Below, piece by piece: positions 34,976 to 59,761 of a stretch of DNA of 64,000 bases. The stretch comes from Planctomycetota bacterium (GTDB lineage: Bacteria > Planctomycetota > Phycisphaerae > Phycisphaerales > Phycisphaeraceae): the NCBI GenBank assembly GCA_024279275.1, contig JAJRRS010000152.1, forward strand, positions 1 to 64,000, written 5' to 3'. The notes under the pieces were generated by a model. That model was not told the origin of the DNA. It searched no databases and was given only the letters and a program-made list of their open reading frames with translations. Position 1 is the first letter of the stretch. Every line of letters begins with the position of its first letter. The position numbers and the translations under genes are program-made.

Positions 34976-35110
34976 GGGGTCGGGCCAATCTAAGGGGTCG
35001 GGAGTCGTATAATATCATATTGGCCAATCTAAGGCCAATCTAAGGGGTCGGGAGTCGTATAATATCATATTGGCCAATCTAAGGGGTCGGGAGTCGTATA
35101 ATATCATATT
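34965..35110 (+). repeat. Tandem/nested array of a 39-bp repeat
   Basis: GGCCAATCTAAGGGGTCGGGAGTCGTATAATATCATATT at 34983-35021, 35033-35071, 35072-35110, with partial units at 34965-34982 and 35022-35032. Confidence 0.97.
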
Positions 35111-35130
35111 GGATTATTGCGTCAGTGGGG

Positions 35131-35575
35131 CAAAAGGGGACGTTCTACTTTATCGGCAACGTAGTGGGGAGCAGAATAATGACCTGGCCTTGGTCTCCCT
35201 CTGTGCCTCCGTGCGCTCCGTGACACCGCCTTCTCTTGCTCGCCTCCCTCGGCGTCCTCCCCATCTTGGCGGTTCATCTTCTTAATCTGCGTCATCTGCG
35301 CAATCTGCGGACACCTCCCCCTCCGCCGTCTTCTCTGCGCACTCCGGGGATCAAAGGGGACATTCTACTTTATCAGCAACGTACCGTGGAGCAGAAAAGT
35401 GACCTGGCCTTTGCCTCCCTCCGTGCCTCTGTGCCTCCGTGCGTTCCGTGACACCGCCTTCTCTTGCTCGCCTCCCTCGGCGTCCTCCCCATCTTGGCGG
35501 TTCATCTTCTTAATCTACGTCATCTGCGAAATCTGCGGACACCTCCCCCTCCGCCGTCTTCTCTGCGCACTCCTC
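35131..35575 (+). repeat. ~220-228 bp tandem duplication beginning with an AAAGGGGAC(A/G)TTCTACTTTATC element
   Basis: Unit 1 from ~35131, unit 2 from ~35351; near-identical text with offset 220 then 228. Confidence 0.93.
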
Positions 35576-36068
35576 GTCTTGACGATTCATCCCACAAGCC
35601 AACACCGTGCGCACACGCGCGCCAAGTTTCCAATCAAAAATCCACCACGACACACAATTCCTTACCAACCCTGCCAGCACGACTTATTCTTGCCTGACTC
35701 ACGCCCAAACCACTTCCATGCGCACAAACCCGACGTTTCCACCAAGAGTGGAGACGCAACTTATCCTTGGAACTACTACTCCGGGGGCCGGGGGCCGGGG
35801 GGCGTCTGCCGACAACCTCACGACGGCGATCGTCAGCTACCCTGAGAATCCAAAGATTAAAAGGACCAGGACTCGAGGGCTGTTGTGACCGGGGATACCC
35901 GATCACAAACTTGGTAGCGGATCGCCCCGGCCAGATGACGGACTCACAGGACACGGGCTTGACCTGGTCCCCATGATCCCGCGCCTGCCGTTACCGCCGG
36001 AACCCCGTGAGGCTTTGGATTTCTGATTTATGATGTGTGAATGATGATTGAATGACCCGATCTTTAAA

Positions 36069-36239
36069 CACAGAGCGCACGGAGCCACAGAGTCACGGAG
36101 AAAAACAAGGCGGATAAACCACGACACAAAGCGCCGCGACTTGTCGCGTCCTCTTCATAATCTGTGTCATCTGCGCAATCTGCGGATACCTCCCCCTCCC
36201 CGTATTCCTCTGTGTCTCTGTGCCTCCGTGCGCTCCGTG
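36069..36239. repeat. Long imperfect inverted repeat of CACAGAG/CACGGAG oligomers with a CGCGACttGTCGCG hairpin inside
   Basis: Left arm 36069-36100 and right arm 36208-36239 are reverse complements at about 28/32 positions; hairpin at 36135-36148. Confidence 0.85.
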
Positions 36240-38061: not shown

Positions 38062-38874
38062 ATGAGCCGTGCATCCTCAATAACCAACGACCCCAACCCC
38101 CCCGGACTCCACAGCCTGACAGGCCTAAGCTCCCTGAGCCGTCAGCCCCTGACACCCGATCAGCAGCTCCAGGCCCTCAAGCGCGTCCAGGCCCAGGCCG
38201 AGCAACGCGTCAAGCTCGGCATGCAGCTATTCAAGGCCGCCGAAGCACGACTCTCCACCCAGACCGATATGCTTGGCCAGATCAAGACCCTCCAGGACCA
38301 GCTCCGCGAACAGGTCAACCAGGATGTCGCCAAGAGCCTCCACGAATACGACCAGTGGATCGGCCAGATCGACGAGAGCTTCACCACCGCCATCCGCAAA
38401 CTCGAAGAAAAAATCGACGCCGTGCAGTCCAACATCGTCTCCAGCGAATCCCGTATCCAGAACATGCTCCAACGTGCCGAAGCCCTCCTCGATCAGAACC
38501 GCGCACTCGTGGAACAAAACAGCCTCAAGTCAATCGACGAACCAACCCAATCACCCGCATCCGCTTTAACACCCGCGCCCAAACCCAAACCAACCATCCT
38601 GGATTCGGTAGCCGCATCAAAACAGATCGCACAAAACCCAACACCTCTAAGCACCCCCCCCACACCCGCCGAACCCGCCGCCGCCGACAGCAACAACGAT
38701 CCGGATAACGAACCCCACAAGTTCCAACCCGAGCAGGAAAAAATCTACCTGACACTGTTGCAACGGTTGATGAATGAGGGAGCCGAGGAAGACGATGGGA
38801 AAAACATGGGGGACGATGCCGAGGAAAACACAACGAACGACGACACCCCCGAAGAAAACGCCAGCGCCGCGTGA
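38062..38874 (+). CDS. Hypothetical coiled-coil protein
   Basis: 270 aa ORF, long heptad-rich central region, acidic C-terminus; coding-like composition. Confidence 0.65.
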   Translation: MSRASSITNDPNPPGLHSLTGLSSLSRQPLTPDQQLQALKRVQAQAEQRVKLGMQLFKAAEARLSTQTDMLGQIKTLQDQLREQVNQDVAKSLHEYDQWIGQIDESFTTAIRKLEEKIDAVQSNIVSSESRIQNMLQRAEALLDQNRALVEQNSLKSIDEPTQSPASALTPAPKPKPTILDSVAASKQIAQNPTPLSTPPTPAEPAAADSNNDPDNEPHKFQPEQEKIYLTLLQRLMNEGAEEDDGKNMGDDAEENTTNDDTPEENASAA

Positions 38875-38950
38875 CACATCTACAAAACCCAGCGCCTGCC
38901 CGCGAGAGCTAAACAGGTCCTGGGGGCGCTGCACGGGACAACACAAGAAT

Positions 38951-38983
38951 ACAGTATATGATTCTACGACTCCCGGCCCTTTT
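38951..38983 (-). repeat. Reverse-oriented copy of the GGGAGTCGTA-type element (left flank of AT-rich gene)
   Basis: Reverse complement AAAGGGCCGGGAGTCGTAGAATCATATACTG vs array AAGGGGTCGGGAGTCGTATAATATCATATTG. Confidence 0.8.
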
Positions 38984-39132
38984 TCCGGTCCTTCTCAAAA
39001 CAACTGGACCAAAGAACCCGAGGGGATCAGTGTACGGGTTGAAGCTCAAGCTGACGGTAGATTACTTACCTTGTGCTATCGCGTATGCTGCGGGTATCAT
39101 ATCTTGTCACTTTCACAAGACGGGGTCTATCT

Positions 39133-40143
39133 ATGACAGAATCTACCGAGACTACACCGCCAGCATCCAAACAGACCCCGAGCCAGCGGCCCCCGTCTAC
39201 TAATCGCTGGACACGCTTTGTCACTGTGTGGTTAGCACCCCTTACAGTAGGCTTGGTGTTTGTATTTGCAACTGCATATGCATTCGTATGGACAACAGAA
39301 TATTTGTCCCGCGTCAGGCATCTGTCATATCGCATTACAAAGAATGATGCAATAATGCCAACCGATAAAGTTGGCGGCGTTGATCTTGAGATTACAGCTA
39401 ATGGCCAGCAAGTAGATAATTTAAGTTTAGTTACTATAGAGTTGTTCAATAAGTCGGATCATAGCTTTACAGATATCGAACTAACAGTTGATTTCTCCGT
39501 AGATGATATTACACGCAAGAGCTTTGACACTGATGGTTGGGGTCTTCTTCCACTATCGGAAACAGATATACAAGGCTATCTCAATGTCAAAAGCAATCTG
39601 GCGGCTTATGAATCAACGATTCCTGATTATGGAAGTGCTATCCATCTGCTACAGTCCGCGCAGAATAAGATAGCATCCGAGTTGCGATCATCTAAAGAAT
39701 TTTCTGGCGATGTTGCAGTATGGTTTGATGCTGCTTTTAGAAATGCAATAGTTGGGCTGGATATTTCGTCATCTGCAAAGCGAATGTCTGATTTTGATTA
39801 TCGCATGGCTGTTCAAAGGCACTACAGAATCACGGTTGCCAATCACGGGGACGCCTCAATATTCAAGGCAACATATATCTTTGCCGCTCCAAAGGCACCA
39901 GATGTTAAACTTATTATGATAGAAGATGGATTAGACTTAGTAGAGCTACCAGAACTAGCGGATAGTCAGTACAGTTTCTTTGATAATCCCGTACCCGCGC
40001 TAGTCGGCGGTGCAATCGGCGGCTTTCTCGCTTTACTATTTTCGTTAAAGTATAGAGTGTCGGCTGAGCTAAATCTTATTGCTGACAGTCTGAAGGTTCT
40101 TATCAGCGCTAAGGATGGCAAACAGAATTCCAATTCAGACTAA
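39133..40143 (+). CDS. Hypothetical membrane protein, AT-rich, N- and C-terminal TM helices flanking a predicted ectodomain
   Basis: 336 aa; WLAPLTVGLVFVFATAYAFVW and VPALVGGAIGGFLALLFSL; visibly lower GC than neighbours. Confidence 0.75.
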   Translation: MTESTETTPPASKQTPSQRPPSTNRWTRFVTVWLAPLTVGLVFVFATAYAFVWTTEYLSRVRHLSYRITKNDAIMPTDKVGGVDLEITANGQQVDNLSLVTIELFNKSDHSFTDIELTVDFSVDDITRKSFDTDGWGLLPLSETDIQGYLNVKSNLAAYESTIPDYGSAIHLLQSAQNKIASELRSSKEFSGDVAVWFDAAFRNAIVGLDISSSAKRMSDFDYRMAVQRHYRITVANHGDASIFKATYIFAAPKAPDVKLIMIEDGLDLVELPELADSQYSFFDNPVPALVGGAIGGFLALLFSLKYRVSAELNLIADSLKVLISAKDGKQNSNSD

Positions 40144-40166
40144 CGTATTGTGAACCCGCCGGGATC

Positions 40167-40260
40167 GGATAAAGGGTCGGGAGTGCTCGGTAGAAAACCT
40201 CCGATTTAACGCCAGAGGATCATAACATTGGACAATCTAAGGGGTCATTCTACATTGATT
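40167..40260 (+). repeat. Forward-oriented copies of the same element family (right flank of AT-rich gene)
   Basis: AAAGGGTCGGGAGTGCTCGG at ~40171; ATTGGACAATCTAAGGGGTCATTCTACATTGATT at 40227-40260. Confidence 0.8.
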
Positions 40261-40297
40261 GAATGCCGCCAAATTAACGTGGAATGTATCTTGCTTG

Positions 40298-41500
40298 TCA
40301 TGTTGTCGTAGTAGCGGTTCCGATGACGCGTTCGAGTTGTCTTAGCGCTTGACGTATGCGTTGTTCGTTTTCGACCAGCGCCATGCGGACGTAGCCTTCG
40401 CCTAATGCGCCGAAGGCGGCGCCGGGGGTCATGGCTACTTCGGCTTGGTCTACCATCGCTAAACAGAAATCGTTGGTGGAACCGTTGTATCTGGCTAAGA
40501 GTTCGGGGTTGACTTTGGCCCAGACGAACATGGTGGCGCGGGGGGAGTCGATCTGCCAGCCTAGTTTTTGCAGGCCACGGACGAGCAGGTCGCGGCGGGA
40601 TTGGTAGATTTTGGCTTGTTTTTCGACGTGTTTATCGCCCTCGCGCATGGCGATGATGGCGGCGATCTGGACGGCCTGGAATATGCCGTAGTCGTAGTAG
40701 CCTTTGACGGTTTTCAGTGCGTCGATCATCTGGCTGTTGCCGCAGCAGAAGCCGATGCGCCAGCCGGCCATGTTGTAGGGTTTGCTTAGGGTTGAGAACT
40801 CGACGCCGTAGTCTTTCGCGCCGTAGGCGGAGAGGTAGCTTGGGGCTTGGTAGTTATCGAAGCATGTTTCGCCGTAGGCGAAGTCGTGCATGACCATGAC
40901 TTGGTGCTCGGCGGCAAGGTCGACGACGCGCTGGAAGAACGCGGGTTCGACGGTCATGGTCGTGGGGTTGTGCGGGTAGTTGAGGATGACGACCTTGGGC
41001 TTGGGGGTGAGGTGCGTCAGCACGTCGCCGATGCGTTGAAGGAACGCATCGTCATTACCTAATGGGACCGAGACCGTGCTTGCGCCGGCGAGGACGACGG
41101 CGTAGGTGTGGATCTGGAACGCGGGGTCTGCGACGACGGCGATGTCACCTGGGCCTAAGAGGCCGAGGCACATGTGGCTGAAGCCTTCTTTGGAGCCGAT
41201 GGTGGCGATGACTTCGTTGTCGAGATCGAGTTCGACGCCCCATTTGCGCTTGTATTTCAGAGCCATCTCACGGCGGAGATTGTAGACGCCGGCGGAGACG
41301 GAGTATCGGCTGTTGCGCGGGTCAAGCACAGCCTCACGGATCTTGTCGATCACGGCGTCGGGCGCGGGGTCTGACGGGTTGCCCATGTTCATGTCGATCA
41401 CATCGGCTCCGGCTTTGCGCCGTTCGTAGATCAACTGCTTGAGCTGGCCGAGGATGTAGGGCGGGAGGCGTTCGATGCGAGTGGCGGGTTGGATGTCCAT
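40298..41500 (-). CDS. Class I/II pyridoxal phosphate aminotransferase (AlaC/LL-DAP-aminotransferase-like)
   Basis: VVILNYPHNPTTMTVE, VMHDFAYGETCFD, STLSKPYNMAGWRIGF (PLP Lys). Confidence 0.93.
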   Translation of the reverse strand: MDIQPATRIERLPPYILGQLKQLIYERRKAGADVIDMNMGNPSDPAPDAVIDKIREAVLDPRNSRYSVSAGVYNLRREMALKYKRKWGVELDLDNEVIATIGSKEGFSHMCLGLLGPGDIAVVADPAFQIHTYAVVLAGASTVSVPLGNDDAFLQRIGDVLTHLTPKPKVVILNYPHNPTTMTVEPAFFQRVVDLAAEHQVMVMHDFAYGETCFDNYQAPSYLSAYGAKDYGVEFSTLSKPYNMAGWRIGFCCGNSQMIDALKTVKGYYDYGIFQAVQIAAIIAMREGDKHVEKQAKIYQSRRDLLVRGLQKLGWQIDSPRATMFVWAKVNPELLARYNGSTNDFCLAMVDQAEVAMTPGAAFGALGEGYVRMALVENEQRIRQALRQLERVIGTATTTT

Positions 41501-53108: not shown

Positions 53109-54443
53109 TCAACCGCCTGAGGCCGCCAACCGCCGACGATGCAGCAGGGCCACGACGCCACCCAAAGCTAACAGCGATAGTGTCCCGGGCTCGGGGACTA
53201 CCGATCCTGTAAGATTTAGGGTCAGGACTTGACCACCCACTGCTCCGACTAAATCCTGATCAGACAGAGTTAGTAAATATGTAGCGTCGAATGTACCAAG
53301 TGTGCTGGTATCAAAGAAGGCAGAAAGATTCTGGCTTGAACCAGCAGCCAAGTTGGAAAAAGTCGCCATATCTGTAGTCAACACACCTACATCGCCGCTA
53401 GGCGCGATACTATCCAAGTCCAGCCCAGCAGTGAAGCCCGCAGTCGCCAAGAGATTTGAAAGGCTAAAAGACTCACTCAATGAGTCGATGTTTGCGGCAA
53501 TTGAGCCAAAGTCAATTGTCAGCACGTTCTGGTCTGCTGCGCTACTGAACGACGCATTGGCATGATCCAATATAGTCGCAGAAACAGAAATCAAGTCATC
53601 GGGATCATCGCTGCCCAAAGCAGATCCGGCCGAGGTGGAGGCCAGATTGTCGAGCACAACGTCGCCGCTCTTATTGCCTGCCGTCGATGTATTGACTCCG
53701 ATAGTTAAAGGCAAGGTGACACTACCACTTGCCAAACCTTGGGATCCATTGGGTGAAACGGTCACATCAGTACTAGTCGTGTTGATGCCCACAGTTGTAC
53801 TCTGGGTACCTGTCTTACTCAATAAGACACCACTATTACTTAGGTTTGCACCGACAATTGCTGTTCCAAAGTTGATGGGCCCGTTTGCAGTTATAAGAGT
53901 GTTATTGCCTGGGAGGGCCGTTCCTGAAAATTGGATCTCAGAATACTCAACTCGTGATGTACCATCAGAAGCTGTTAGGGGTGTGAAAATAAAGGAGCGA
54001 ATACCGTTGAAGCCCTGCGTGCTGATGTTGTACTCAACTAGCGTTGTAGGGTTGGTTTGTGTATCGAAATATGTAGTGCCAATCTGACTTCCAGTAGCAT
54101 CGGGCTCATTAAAGAATGCTAGCTGAAAAGAAGAGACCGCATTAAGTGAGTTAGAGCCATGTTCACCCAGTAGAAAGAATGAATCAAGATCATAGTTTTG
54201 ATTGAAGTTGTATGTGACACTCACTGGCAAAAAGTCTATCGAAACACCATTGTTCACAGGGGTCATGCCAGGTAAGTCTAAAATACCATCGACAGTTTGG
54301 GCAAATGATCCGGAAGGAATCGATTCAACACCGCTAGCGCTGGAAAATGATATTTGGCCCGGCCCTGTGATTGTCCCCGCGCCGTTCGCTGATTGGAAAG
54401 TGATGAGAAATACTAAAGCAGTAAAGATACTGATGCGTTTCAT
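53109..54443 (-). CDS. PEP-CTERM sorting domain protein
   Basis: Signal peptide MKRISIFTALVFLITFQSANGA; C-term VVPEPGTLSLLALGGVVALLHRRR. Confidence 0.9.
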   Translation of the reverse strand: MKRISIFTALVFLITFQSANGAGTITGPGQISFSSASGVESIPSGSFAQTVDGILDLPGMTPVNNGVSIDFLPVSVTYNFNQNYDLDSFFLLGEHGSNSLNAVSSFQLAFFNEPDATGSQIGTTYFDTQTNPTTLVEYNISTQGFNGIRSFIFTPLTASDGTSRVEYSEIQFSGTALPGNNTLITANGPINFGTAIVGANLSNSGVLLSKTGTQSTTVGINTTSTDVTVSPNGSQGLASGSVTLPLTIGVNTSTAGNKSGDVVLDNLASTSAGSALGSDDPDDLISVSATILDHANASFSSAADQNVLTIDFGSIAANIDSLSESFSLSNLLATAGFTAGLDLDSIAPSGDVGVLTTDMATFSNLAAGSSQNLSAFFDTSTLGTFDATYLLTLSDQDLVGAVGGQVLTLNLTGSVVPEPGTLSLLALGGVVALLHRRRLAASGG

Positions 54444-55170: not shown

Positions 55171-55502
55171 TCAGTTGTCCGCCTGGTAGCGGACCAGTTC
55201 TGCCCAGATTTCGTGGCGAAGTTCTTTGACGGGTTTGTTGGAGCCGGTGTAGCCGTTGGCGAGGAAGGAGAAGGCGAGCCATTGGTTGTCGAGGGTTTTG
55301 ATGTAGCCGGAGATGGTGGAGACGCCGGTCATGCCGCCGGTTTTGGCGAAGACGCGCTTGGGGTTGTAGTCGGTGAGTGGTTTGTGGTTCCAGGTTGCGT
55401 CGTCGGGGATCTCAACTTTGTAGATGGGTAGGCCGTCGAAGAAAGGGGCGAAGTGTGGGTGGGTTTTCATGAATGCGAGGAGCTTGCCGGGCGAGTCGGG
55501 AT
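55171..55502 (-). pseudogene. Truncated duplicate of dacB 3' end
   Basis: KTHPHFAPFFDGLPIYKVEIPDDATWNHKPLTDYNPKRVFAKTGGMTGVSTISGYIKTLDNQWLAFSFLANGYTGSNKPVKELRHEIWAELVRY matches the C-terminus of the 57953-59425 gene; homology stops near 55500. Confidence 0.93.
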
Positions 55503-55520: not shown

Positions 55521-55548
55521 CGTTAAAGTAGAATGTCCCCTTTGATTT
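55521..55548 (-). repeat. Reverse copy of AAAGGGGACATTCTACTTTAA element
   Basis: Plus strand TTAAAGTAGAATGTCCCCTTTGA. Confidence 0.92.
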
Positions 55549-55703
55549 CCCGACCGAGGTGTTGTCCGCTTTACCCGGTGTTGCGCTTCGGAATTGAATC
55601 CGCCGGGTGTGAGGTTTTTATTTGAAGCGATCCACCAGTCCACGAGCAAACACCGGTCGCTAGGAAGCGGTGCGGTCTTGTAGCCGTTGAGATGGACGGA
55701 TGC

Positions 55704-57548
55704 CTAAGCCGGAATTGGCGAAGAACCCTGCCGTCGAGTCAACAGACCCAACGAGGACAACCCCAAGCAAACCAGCGATGCGGGTTCCGGAATGTTAGCG
55801 GTAACGCTCGGCGGGGTACCCGCGTTCCAGTTGCCCAAAACGGCGTTGAGATCGTCGATACCGACGAAGCCGTCACCGCTGGGGTCCGCCAGCGGGTTGG
55901 CGGGCGGGACGTTCTGATTCCAGTTACTCAACACGATGTTCAGGTCGGCGATGCCCACGAAGCCGTCGCCATCGAGGTCGCCGGTCAGACTGGTAAAGCC
56001 ACTGCTGGCCACACCCGATCGGCCGTCAAGCAGGCGGAAATGATAGGCGACCTGGCCGAGGTTGTTCAGGCCGCCGCGCTCGGCGCGGTTGGAGACGCCG
56101 CTGTGGCTGAAGGACAGGTCGGTGATGGTGCTGCCCAGCAGGGCATCGCCCTCTCGGACGACCAGGCGCAGGCCGAGGATATCGTCGTACAGGAAGATGC
56201 CCGTGTCATCGAAGGTCGCGCCGCTGGTGCCGGAGAGGGAGCTTTTGAACGCCACCTGCCCGGCGTCGTTGATCGCGGGCTCCCCCATGTTCAAGCTAGA
56301 GAAGGTGCCGTTGCCATCGGGCGAGGCCTGGCCTTCGCGGACGATCTGGGTGAGCGTCAAGCCATCGCTGCGGAAGATGCCCGCGTTGTCGCTGGACCCG
56401 CCGCTGGTGCCGACGAAGGCGCCGAAGAACGCCACCTGCCCGGCCTCGTTGAGCGCGGGGTTGATGCTGAAAGCCTGCCACCGAAAACTGTCGAAGGTGC
56501 CATTGCCGTCTGGTGCCGCCTGGCCTTTACGGACGATTCGGACGAGATTGCCGGGGGTGTCGGGGGTGCCGGGGGTGCCGGGGGTGCCGTCGCCTCGGAA
56601 GATACCCTCATTGTCGCTGGAGCCGCCACTGGTGCCGGTGAATATGGCTATGAACGCCGTCTGCTGGGCATCGTTGAACGCGGGGGCTAGAAATTGGGAG
56701 AAGACGCCGTTGCCATCGAGCGCAAAATCGTCCTTCTCGACGATTTGAGTGGGCGTGGTGATGCCGTTGCCGTGGAAGATGCCTTTCCCGGCGCCGAAGA
56801 CGTCCGTGCGGCCCGAGAACGCCACCTGGCCGTTCTGGTTCAGAGTGACCACGGCGCTGAATCCGCTGAAACCGCCGCCCGTGATCGCGGGGTCGCCTGC
56901 GCGGACGATCCGGGTGAGCGTGGCACCGTCGCTGCGGAAGATGCCCAGTTTGGCCCCGACGGTGCCGGCGAAGCCGCCGCGGAACGCCACCTGCCCGGCG
57001 TCGTTGAGCGTGGGGGTAAACAAGGCAAAGTTGAAGCTGCCGTTGCCATCGGGTGCGGCCTGGCCTTCGCGGACGATCTGGGCGAGGCCTGCGGGGGTGC
57101 CGTCGCTGCGGAAGATGCCCGTGTCATCGCCGGACCCGCCGGAAGTGCCGGTGAGGGAGGTGAGGAACGCCACCTGCCCGGCGTTGTTGAGCGCGGGGAT
57201 CTTGCTGGAAGAGAGGAAATTGGCGAAGCTGCCATTGCCGTTGGGTACGCTCTGGCCTTCGCGAGCGATCTGGCTAAGCGTGGTCCCGTTGCCGAGGAAG
57301 ATGCCCGTGTCATCGCTGGACCCGCCGGAAGTGCCGGTGAGGGCGCTGAAGAACACCGCCTGCCCGGCATCGTTGAACGCGGGCCCAAGGAGAAAGATGG
57401 AGCCAATGGTGCCGTTGCCATCCGGCGCCGCGTCACCGCTGACGGCGATGACTTGGGTGGTCGTCTGGGCGGGGGCCGACACGCACAGGGTTAACAAACA
57501 CACGACAGCACAGACGCGGCCAATCCGCTGAGAAGAAGTGATAAGCAT
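55704..57548 (-). CDS. NxxGxxAF-type tandem-repeat protein with dockerin-like repeats and PEP-CTERM
   Basis: Repeated NDAGQVAFxxxxxGTSGGSxDDxGIFRSDG...VREGQAAPDGNG; GDLDGDGFVGIADLNIVLSNWN; NIPEPASLVCLGLSSLGLLTRR. Confidence 0.93.
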   Translation of the reverse strand: MLITSSQRIGRVCAVVCLLTLCVSAPAQTTTQVIAVSGDAAPDGNGTIGSIFLLGPAFNDAGQAVFFSALTGTSGGSSDDTGIFLGNGTTLSQIAREGQSVPNGNGSFANFLSSSKIPALNNAGQVAFLTSLTGTSGGSGDDTGIFRSDGTPAGLAQIVREGQAAPDGNGSFNFALFTPTLNDAGQVAFRGGFAGTVGAKLGIFRSDGATLTRIVRAGDPAITGGGFSGFSAVVTLNQNGQVAFSGRTDVFGAGKGIFHGNGITTPTQIVEKDDFALDGNGVFSQFLAPAFNDAQQTAFIAIFTGTSGGSSDNEGIFRGDGTPGTPGTPDTPGNLVRIVRKGQAAPDGNGTFDSFRWQAFSINPALNEAGQVAFFGAFVGTSGGSSDNAGIFRSDGLTLTQIVREGQASPDGNGTFSSLNMGEPAINDAGQVAFKSSLSGTSGATFDDTGIFLYDDILGLRLVVREGDALLGSTITDLSFSHSGVSNRAERGGLNNLGQVAYHFRLLDGRSGVASSGFTSLTGDLDGDGFVGIADLNIVLSNWNQNVPPANPLADPSGDGFVGIDDLNAVLGNWNAGTPPSVTANIPEPASLVCLGLSSLGLLTRRQGSSPIPA

Positions 57549-57762
57549 GTAATAGTCCGCCCTTAATATGGCCCGTCAGATAGGCCTTGGATAGGAAACC
57601 ACCCGGGTGCCCGCCTCCCCGCAGGCCGAACGCCAACCCGACCCGAGTCGCCCTGATCGTACAGCACAACGGTCTGTAATGATAGAAAAATCTCAGTTTA
57701 ATAAGACGGCAAAAACGTGTTAACATCGCCACCAAACATGCGAAGCCAACACCGCCCAGCGC

Positions 57763-57795
57763 ACAAAAAAGCCCGCCCCAAGGAGGACGGGTCCA
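57763..57795 (-). terminator. Probable Rho-independent terminator downstream of dacB
   Basis: Minus strand ACCCGTCCtccttgGGGCGGGCTTTTTT; imperfect stem plus T6. Confidence 0.6.
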
Positions 57796-57867
57796 ATCCT
57801 GTTTGGCATGGCGGTTGCCGGTTTTTGTGGCTGGGGGCAGATCGTCGCCGTGAGTGCGTTGGGGGAA

Positions 57868-57893
57868 TTCAAAGGGGACATTCTGCTTTAATC
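57868..57893 (+). repeat. Forward copy of AAAGGGGACATTCT(A/G)CTTTAA element
   Basis: TTCAAAGGGGACATTCTGCTTTAATC. Confidence 0.92.
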
Positions 57894-57952: not shown

Positions 57953-59425
57953 TTAATTGCCCGGGCTATCTGTGGGGCTGTAGCGGATCAGCTCTGTCCA
58001 GATTTCGTTGCGTAATTCTTTGACGGGTTTGCTGGAGCCGGTGTAGCCGTTGGCGAGGAAGGAGAAGGCGAGCCATTGGTTGTCGAGGGTTTTGATGTAG
58101 CCGGAGATGGTGGAGACGCCGGTCATGCCGCCGGTTTTGGCGAAGACGCGTTTTGGGTCGTAGTGGGTGATTGGTTTGTTGTTCCACGTTTCGTTGTCAA
58201 GGAGTGGGACTTTGTAGATGGGTAGGCCGTCGAAGAAGGGGGCGAAGTGTTTGTGGGTTTTCATGAATGCCAGGAGCTTGACGGACGAGTCTGCGGAGAT
58301 GAGGTTGTAGCGGGAGAGGCCTGACCCGTCGACGAGGCGGAAGGAGCCTGGTTCCAGGCCGGCGGTGTTGGTCAGCCAGTCGGTGATGACTTTGGCGCCG
58401 GCGGGCCAACTTACATCGCCATCGGTTTGTGTTTCCGCGAGTTTTAGAAGCACCATTTCGCCGACGGCGTTTTCGCTGACTTTCAGGAAATGGCGAAGGG
58501 CTTCTGCGAGGTTTTCGCCTTCACGAGAAGTCAGCGTATGCCTTAATAACTCATCGCGTGCACAACCCGTCACAAACTTAACCCCTCGTTCTTCCAACAT
58601 CTGCTTAAACACCGATGCGATCCATGGGAAGGGGTCGTGCATCGTAATTGTCTCACGCACCGGGTCGCTCCCGGGTTTTAGTACACCGGTGACATGGATG
58701 GCCTCCTCGAAAGATTCACGCTCAATTCTGATCCCCATGTCATCAGTGTTATTCGGAGTCACGACGACAACCGGGGGCCAACTTGTTGCAGGTTCTAGTA
58801 CCACTGAAATACCGCCAGCACTGGGGCTGACCACCACGTCCAGTGTATTGAAGTTCAGCATGACCGATCGGATGGACATGTTGTAGTAGTCGGGGTCGTC
58901 GTCCCACATCCAGCCGGGGCCTTTGATGGGCACGTTTTGCCAGCGTGGCGATGTTGCGACACTTACACCGCCGTATACCTTTGTGAGCTTGTGTTTGTTT
59001 ACCAACTCGTTTGCCATCTGTGATAATTGTTCAGTATCCAGCATCGGATCACCCGTACCCCCGATGACCAGATCACTGGAACTTACGCCATCCCGGATAG
59101 GCACCTGGGCACCAACCTGCGTTGTCCATGTGTAGTCCGGGCCGAGCAGGTCGAGTGCGGCGGCGGCGGTGTAGATTTTGAGGTTGGATGCGGGGATGAG
59201 GAGTCGGTCGCCGCCGCGGTCGTAGAGGACTTCGCCGGTTTCAAGATCGACGACCTTGAGAGTGAGGGTGGTGCGCCGGGCGGCGGAGCTGTTGTCCAGG
59301 AGGGTGTTGAGGGTCTGGGTTAACGCGCTGGCGTCGAGGGGTTCGATGGCGTGGGCGGTATTTACAACCGTCAGGCTGTAGGTGGCGATCACGATGGACA
59401 ACAAGAAGGTTTTGGCGGCCTGCAT
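57953..59425 (-). CDS. dacB: D-alanyl-D-alanine carboxypeptidase/endopeptidase (PBP4 family)
   Basis: LLIPASNLKIYTAAAALDLLGPDYTW (SxxK), LVDGSGLSRYNLIS (SxN-like region), FAKTGGMTGVSTISGY (KTG). Confidence 0.95.
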   Translation of the reverse strand: MQAAKTFLLSIVIATYSLTVVNTAHAIEPLDASALTQTLNTLLDNSSAARRTTLTLKVVDLETGEVLYDRGGDRLLIPASNLKIYTAAAALDLLGPDYTWTTQVGAQVPIRDGVSSSDLVIGGTGDPMLDTEQLSQMANELVNKHKLTKVYGGVSVATSPRWQNVPIKGPGWMWDDDPDYYNMSIRSVMLNFNTLDVVVSPSAGGISVVLEPATSWPPVVVVTPNNTDDMGIRIERESFEEAIHVTGVLKPGSDPVRETITMHDPFPWIASVFKQMLEERGVKFVTGCARDELLRHTLTSREGENLAEALRHFLKVSENAVGEMVLLKLAETQTDGDVSWPAGAKVITDWLTNTAGLEPGSFRLVDGSGLSRYNLISADSSVKLLAFMKTHKHFAPFFDGLPIYKVPLLDNETWNNKPITHYDPKRVFAKTGGMTGVSTISGYIKTLDNQWLAFSFLANGYTGSSKPVKELRNEIWTELIRYSPTDSPGN

Positions 59426-59761
59426 ATCGACATACTCCGGTAAACAAGAGTGGTTGATGTTCCGAGTCTGCGGCATGATACCCGGCGCGCAGGAGGTGGC
59501 ACAACACCGGGTCGATCAGGCGGTGGTTAAGTCGAACCGTTGTTTTACGAATTGACTGATACCAATCGCGTAAATAACTCGTGCGGTAATGCGTGACACC
59601 GTTCCCACGTTCTACAGAACGTGGGCTTCGCAGGGGCATGAAGATTAAATGGGATTGGTATGAATGCGGTGAAGAACCAGCGGATACCCCGCCGAAGCAC
59701 CGGGGCGGTGCATCAGCGGGCTTCTGCCAGAGCTATCTTGATGTCCGCTCGGACGCGGTGT

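What the first reader, a model, noticed from the sequence alone, without database searches (positions are those of the whole stretch)
38951..40260. AT-rich single-gene island boxed by inverted copies of a dispersed short element
The 39133-40143 gene is conspicuously AT-rich against a C- or G-rich background. On its left (38951-38983) is a reverse copy of the AAAGGG(T/C)CGGGAGTCGTA-type element. On its right (40167-40190 and 40227-40260) are forward copies. The AAAGGGG heads face inward and the tails outward. The gene has no recognised function (two TM helices around an ectodomain). This looks like a gene cassette moved by a non-autonomous element rather than by a conventional IS; no transposase is present.
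Basis: partly seen in the sequence, partly recalled or inferred. Interest (0 to 1): 0.72.

Follow-up and report, generated by a model that had tools for sequence, protein, structure and literature searches.

The report
Orphan gene boxed by inward-facing repeats
A foreign-looking single gene in a planctomycete chromosome sits between two inverted copies of a short repeat that belongs to a RAYT-like (TIRYT) transposase; the same inward-facing boxing of AT-rich accessory genes, some of them phage-defence genes, recurs across the bacterial family, which suggests a little-known route by which single genes are inserted or swapped.

Summary
The gene (39133-40143, GC 0.434 against 0.58 in the window) is an orphan, absent from 50 genomes of its family. 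It is boxed by a reverse R1 repeat on the left and a forward R1 hybrid on the right. The second right copy (40238) belongs to another family, R2. R1 is the terminal inverted repeat (TIR) of a RAYT-like Y1 transposase gene elsewhere in this genome, so the kind is TIRYT/TIRtron (known since 2013). What appears new is the pattern. In Phycisphaeraceae, non-transposase TIR pairs 0.3-3.5 kb apart face heads-in in 14 of 16 cases. DNA is AT-richer on the head side (42 of 54 clusters; 16 of 19 in a fresh set). Heads coincide with breakpoints of gene content. At three sites an orthologous TIR borders different cargo in two species. A second box in this window (55526-57888) lies between 312-bp direct repeats of its target gene. 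Head-side cargo includes a type II R-M system, an FRG gene and an OLD-like gene. That TIRYT moves cargo is inferred, not shown: one TIR was clearly added beside an older AT-rich gene, and relatives carry accessory genes here without TIRs.

The parts
38938..38983 (-). left R1 TIR, head at 38983 facing the gene, tail towards core gene 38062-38874
38986..39029 (+). truncated copy of a separate dispersed element (ACAACTGGACCAAAGAACCCGAGGGG)
   Evidence: 10 copies in the genus
39133..40143 (+). AT-rich orphan gene, 336 aa, two hydrophobic segments (cargo)
40167..40213 (+). right R1 hybrid TIR (R1 head, tail GTGCTCGGTAGAAAACC), head facing the gene
40232..40262 (+). R2-type repeat, a diverged copy at the same place in G023; shared homology begins here
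38062..38874 (+). left flanking gene (coiled-coil), conserved in relatives
40298..41500 (-). right flanking core gene (class I/II aminotransferase)
55526..55543 (-). second box: left R2 TIR
55704..57548 (-). second box: cargo gene (DUF7453)
57871..57888 (+). second box: right R2 TIR
55186..55497 (.). second box: left copy of 312-bp target duplication (truncated 3' end of S13 peptidase gene)
57980..58291 (.). second box: right copy of the duplication, inside the intact S13 gene 57953-59476
34983..35121 (+). three tandem R1 copies
35133..35573 (+). tandem duplication of R2 plus about 200 bp (35133-35345 / 35353-35573)

Best explanation
The island is an accessory-gene insertion between two convergent core genes, bounded on both sides by TIRs of RAYT-like Y1 (HUH) transposases (TIRYT class), with heads towards the cargo and tails towards the core genome. 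In this family the TIR head is the junction at which accessory DNA is joined, duplicated or exchanged. Shown: heads-in pairing, GC polarity, head-coincident breakpoints, TIRs at the local duplications, and a target duplication around one whole box. Inferred: TIRYT, acting in trans, nicks at the AAAGGGG head; repair or strand transfer there attaches foreign DNA and copies 10-300 bp of flank, so that single genes are inserted or swapped while the TIRs stay as borders. For this particular box, arrival of the cargo together with its R1 pair is likely but not demonstrated.
For: Cognate Y1 gene with heads-out R1 flanks at C81. Pairs 0.3-3.5 kb apart: 12 heads-in, 2 heads-out (one around the C81 Y1 gene, one around an ORF with a Y1-like start), 1 same orientation; two more heads-in and one heads-out in an unselected set. 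GC step at the head, repeated in the unselected set 16 of 19, p 2.7e-4, absent in 20 copies of the same head from other Planctomycetota. Tail flanks match core DNA of relatives, head flanks mostly match nothing. Orthologous TIR with different cargo at three sites. Second box of the window inside a 312-bp target duplication. All 10 local direct duplications in 717 kb involve a TIR. Same hybrid right end with another AT-rich single gene in G035.
Against: C44: TIR inserted beside an AT-rich gene that relatives have without TIR. The R-M relative in G015 lies in another island without R1. The finding's site holds other cargo without R1 in G023 and G026. No cargo was found twice with its TIRs. No duplication flanks the finding's own box. 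Most loci were fetched because they hold TIRs.
Confidence: 0.45

Rival explanations
1. Biased marking: accessory genes arrive at permissive intergenic hotspots by other means (phage, recombination), and TIRs later insert at the edges with the head towards the AT-rich side. The TIRs are followers of islands, not their vehicles.
For: C44, where the TIR is younger than the AT-rich gene; accessory genes without TIRs at the same sites in relatives; R-M relative in another island without R1; several unrelated TIR families show the same polarity.
Against: Box 55526-57888 lies as a whole inside a target duplication; breakpoints of content fall at or within a few bases of the head at three shared sites; polarity on both sides of a box needs two independent oriented insertions each time.
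Confidence: 0.38
2. Placement rule only: repeats sit between convergent genes downstream of coding regions, as REPs do, and heads-in pairs are a by-product of insertion with the tail towards a gene's 3' end.
For: 3'/3' intergenic regions are preferred (27 of 51 copies); REPs are known to prefer them (PMC3733652).
Against: Over all copies no head or tail preference for 3' ends within 150 bp (21 against 17). Several heads-in boxes lie between co-directional genes (L091, L182, L185, L186, window 55526-57888).
Confidence: 0.08
3. Selection for insulation: TIRs act as transcription terminators that shield core genes from foreign inserts, so copies with this orientation are kept.
For: Reading from tail to head the element ends in CCCCTTTT.
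Against: Single copies do not fold better than shuffles; the terminator scan finds no site at the left TIR; in co-directional contexts one of the two TIRs would have no use.
Confidence: 0.05
4. An integron-type gene cassette (attC site, IntI).
For: Single AT-rich orphan genes; an adjacent dispersed element that can form an imperfect hairpin.
Against: No IntI: all TIGR02249 matches are far below the cut-off and miss the stretch around positions 190-238, as XerC/D-like proteins do. attC was not searched with a model.
Confidence: 0.03

Closest known systems
TIRtron / TIRYT (Di Nocera et al. 2013, PMC3733652; probably TnpA-Y1 subclass 2.1 of Quentin et al. 2018, PMC6006769)
   Same: Y1 transposase gene flanked by inverted repeats with a GGGG motif instead of GTAG REPs; the repeats are also dispersed as singles, doublets and clusters.
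   Different: Here repeats also bracket non-transposase accessory genes in the opposite sense (heads in), with a GC step at the head and long duplications; I found no report of this.
REPIN / RAYT (Bertels and Rainey 2011, PMC3116915)
   Same: Non-autonomous repeat doublets tied to a RAYT-type gene; heads-out doublets 26-60 bp apart occur here too.
   Different: Single copies here are not stable hairpins and lack GTAG; boxes are gene-sized and heads-in.
Composite transposon
   Same: Gene between two inverted copies of a mobile element.
   Different: No transposase inside or in the borders, borders of about 50 bp, long rather than short target duplication where one is seen.
Integron gene cassette
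   Same: Single, often orphan or defence genes, exchanged at fixed sites.
   Different: No IntI found; the ends are TIRs of a Y1 transposase.

Membership tests
TIR family of a TIRYT (TIRtron) | Y1_Tnp gene flanked by inverted copies of the repeat | tested here: met
   C81 gene, 232 aa, Pfam Y1_Tnp E 5e-10, R1 copies 21 bp at 90% on both sides, heads out
TIR family of a TIRYT (TIRtron) | Motif GGGGWSAS in the repeat | tested here: inconclusive
   R2 GGGGACAT and R1 GGGGTCGG each fit 7 of 8 positions (read)
TIR family of a TIRYT (TIRtron) | Dispersed copies as singles, doublets and clusters | tested here: met
TIR family of a TIRYT (TIRtron) | Transposase of subclass 2.1 with a C-terminal HTH | tested here: inconclusive
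   Pfam shows Y1_Tnp only; no subclass tree built
REP / REPIN of a RAYT | Single copy forms a stable hairpin tagged GTAG | tested here: not met
   fold z-scores mostly near 0 for single copies, no GTAG tag
IS200/IS605 element | Transposase gene inside the box | tested here: not met
   none in 38984-40166
Integron cassette | Integron integrase in the genome or genus | tested here: not met
   no TIGR02249 match over the cut-off in 6 genomes; assemblies are incomplete
Integron cassette | attC site at the cassette end | not tested
   looked at by eye only
Mobile cassette (in general) | Target duplication around the unit | tested here: inconclusive
   not seen at the finding's box; 312 bp around the second box in the window

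The most novel reading that the evidence does not exclude
In Phycisphaeraceae, TIR pairs in heads-in orientation are the borders of a gene-capture and gene-exchange system run in trans by RAYT-like TIRYT nucleases: nicking at the AAAGGGG head attaches single accessory genes (defence systems, toxin- or immunity-like and orphan membrane proteins) with long target duplications, and later swaps the cargo while the borders remain.
Probability: 0.33. Interest if true: 0.85.

Novelty: new variant of a known kind. Interest (0 to 1): 0.7.

Why it matters
What RAYT-like proteins do for or to their hosts is an open question. Here their repeats are tied, with orientation, to the borders of accessory genes, to long local duplications and to content exchange between species. 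If the link is causal, a domesticated single-strand nuclease would be a route for gain and swap of single genes, including phage defence. The claim can be tested with sequence data from complete genomes and with one purified protein.

Tried and rejected
Integron cassette: no IntI. The dispersed element at 38986-39029 as the cassette end: 10 copies in the genus with different neighbours, no Rfam match to it, not specific to boxes. Homologues of the 336-aa protein: none in 51 family genomes, plasmids or GTDB contigs; the weak phylum hits (E down to 4e-5) that I looked into do not lie in recognisable relatives (flagellin, ABC permease). AlphaFold without relatives: pLDDT 42, not used for a fold search. 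Orientation relative to gene 3' ends as the full cause: rejected (and co-directional boxes). Terminator function: weak. Replication origin at the skew switch: no perfect DnaA box within 19 kb. A Pfam call on ten further cargo ORFs failed on a wrong coordinate and was not repeated.

Full report
SETTING. The window is contig C175 of a 3.76-Mb assembly in 200 contigs. Relatives are unnamed, but contig lengths of two (22,331 bp in G025, 127,494 bp in G040) equal those of records titled Phycisphaeraceae bacterium OFTM326 and OFTM12, so I place it in Phycisphaeraceae (inference). In what follows, R1 is the AAAGGGGTCGGGAGTCG element of the finding, R2 is AAAGGGGACATTCTACTT, R5 is AAGAAACGGTGTCGGATACC. 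Head is the A/G-rich end, tail the other.

OBSERVATION. The AT-rich gene and the two inward-facing R1 copies are real. Six R1 heads with at most one mismatch occur in the window against 0.025 expected, and 20 in the genome against 4 for the reversed control. The right R1 copy carries a different tail, GTGCTCGGTAGAAAACC. The gene's protein has two hydrophobic segments and matches no family. No homologue was found in 50 other genomes of the family, in plasmids or in GTDB contigs; hits in the phylum are weak and those inspected lie in unrelated genes.

THE ELEMENT. One of eight Y1_Tnp matches in the genome, C81:6259-6606, lies in a 232-aa gene between R1 copies with heads outward. This anatomy, with a GGGG-type motif and no GTAG hairpin, is that of TIRtrons with TIRYT transposases (PMC3733652; PMC6006769). 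Single R1 and R2 copies do not fold better than shuffles in most cases, so 'terminal inverted repeat' (TIR) fits better than 'REP'.

THE SITE. Between the same two core genes, G023 holds three other genes (5.1 kb, GC about 0.52), G026 an autotransporter-like repeat protein with a PEP-CTERM-like end, and G024 about 0.4 kb with remnants that I read by eye as a transposase end and a PEP-CTERM end. The place is thus a site of turnover. Homology between this genome and G023 resumes at the R2 repeat at 40238 and continues on its tail side; on the head side the content differs.

A FAMILY-WIDE PATTERN. Positions of R1 and R2 were tabulated in 51 genomes and loci fetched. Same-family neighbours 0.3-3.5 kb apart are 12 heads-in, 2 heads-out and 1 in the same orientation. 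The two heads-out pairs enclose the Y1 gene of C81 and an ORF with a Y1-like start (G048 C43). A further 20 loci, taken without regard to pairing, added two heads-in pairs and one heads-out pair around what I read as a DDE fragment. Of 16 non-transposase pairs 14 are heads-in; with 25% expected, p is about 3e-7 (my arithmetic; the pairs are not fully independent). The finding's own box is not in this count because its right head has a mismatch beyond the pattern; the same holds for boxes in G023 C22 and G025 C44.

GC POLARITY. Aligned on the head, GC is flat at 0.57-0.60 over 2 kb on the tail side and 0.51-0.54 for about 1.2 kb on the head side, returning to 0.59 near 2 kb (54 clusters, 42 with the head side lower, Wilcoxon 1e-6). 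Part of this set was chosen for pairs; the unselected R1 set of this genome (15 of 18) and the later validation set (16 of 19, p 2.7e-4) agree. The same head in other Planctomycetota shows nothing (10 of 20), which serves as a control.

CARGO. Boxes hold an EcoRI-type methylase with a type II nuclease (G023 C22), an FRG-domain gene of the candidate defence group PDC-S15 (G025 C49), a DUF6572 gene (C76), an Rhs-like fragment (weak match) with a small membrane protein (G027 C53), and AT-rich orphans, e.g. G048 C50 (340 aa, GC 0.33), G048 C43, G035 C16 (143 aa, GC 0.35). The last has the same hybrid right end as the finding. An OLD/GajA-like ATPase lies on the head side of a single TIR (G025 C53).

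HEADS AS BREAKPOINTS. Tail flanks often match core DNA of relatives, while head flanks rarely match anything (some hits are to dispersed repeats). Three repeats are orthologous in two species but border different cargo: R1 of C26 against G027 C53, R2 at 40238 against G023, and the left R5 at C135 against G023 C67. The cargo proteins are not similar. The alignments stop at the head or a few bases beyond.

DUPLICATIONS. The second box of this window, R2 55526 and 57871 around a DUF7453 gene, lies between 312-bp direct repeats, 91% identical. The left one is a truncated copy of the 3' end of the S13 peptidase gene; the right one is inside the intact gene. This is the layout of a target duplication around the whole box (a single-crossover insertion of a circle carrying the gene end would look the same). 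At C44 a single TIR, within 49 bp, lies between 152-bp copies of the end of a SulP-like transporter gene (named by eye). In 717 kb of fetched sequence, all 10 local direct duplications (90 bp or more, 88% or more) involve a TIR at or within the junction. The loci were fetched mostly around TIRs, so the control is partial; in later loci one 442-bp duplication lies 0.8 kb from a TIR. Shorter tandem units of 10-19 bp, different at each locus, abut many heads on the cargo side.

AGAINST A SIMPLE CASSETTE. At C44 the AT-rich gene is present near the transporter in G023 and G024 without a TIR, so there the TIR came later. The R-M relative in G015 (83%) lies in another island without R1. No cargo was found twice with its TIRs. 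The box of G048 C50 (between ilvD-like and nrnA-like genes, named by eye) is empty in three relatives, but diverged flanks hide the exact join.

MECHANISM. Shown: association, polarity, breakpoints, duplications, cognate transposase. Inferred: TIRYT nicks at the head; the released end is extended, rejoined or joined to other DNA, which yields tandem flank copies, single-TIR insertions with target duplication and, when foreign DNA is joined, boxes. The strongest rival is that TIRs merely mark the edges of islands that come by other routes. I put these at 0.45 and 0.38.

NOVELTY. The element class is known. I found no report of inward boxing of accessory genes by these repeats in the open-access library searched; subscription papers were not searched. 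I file it as a new variant of a known kind.

Noticed in passing
window 35705-36239; also L091 4190-4884, L183 6579-7261, L198 4038-4675, L096 3896-4517, L102 5392-6251: A dispersed intergenic repeat of 500-700 bp with a strongly conserved core of about 235 bp (up to 95%) that matches no Rfam family and often lies on the tail side of TIRs; it could be a structured RNA or a larger non-autonomous element.
   Followed up: partly
window 38986-39029; L145-L153: Dispersed element of about 50 bp (ACCACCCCCGATTCTCTCATAACAACTGGACCAAAGAACCCGAGGGGGTCA) with a sharp right edge at TCA and an imperfect hairpin, often next to accessory genes such as a C5-methylase/helicase/Vsr-like cluster in G025 C21 (named by eye).
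   Followed up: partly
window 39000-40500: GC skew changes sign here, from about -0.3 to +0.2, and does so at the same site in G023, although no perfect DnaA box is near.
   Followed up: partly
window 40184-40235; L102 4430; L106 5477-5540; L207 4633 and 4746; L265 3556: A tail module TGCTC(G/T)GTAGAAAACCTC follows different heads (R1, R5 and others), so these repeats look modular, with exchange of heads and tails.
   Followed up: partly
window 53109-54443: AT-rich (GC 0.48) PEP-CTERM gene next to the second box; G023 seems to lack the stretch from about 53 to 60 kb.
   Followed up: no
L097 5027-5086 (C82); L104 4993 (G024 C106): R1 copies inside predicted coding genes: a heads-out doublet and a single copy.
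   Followed up: no
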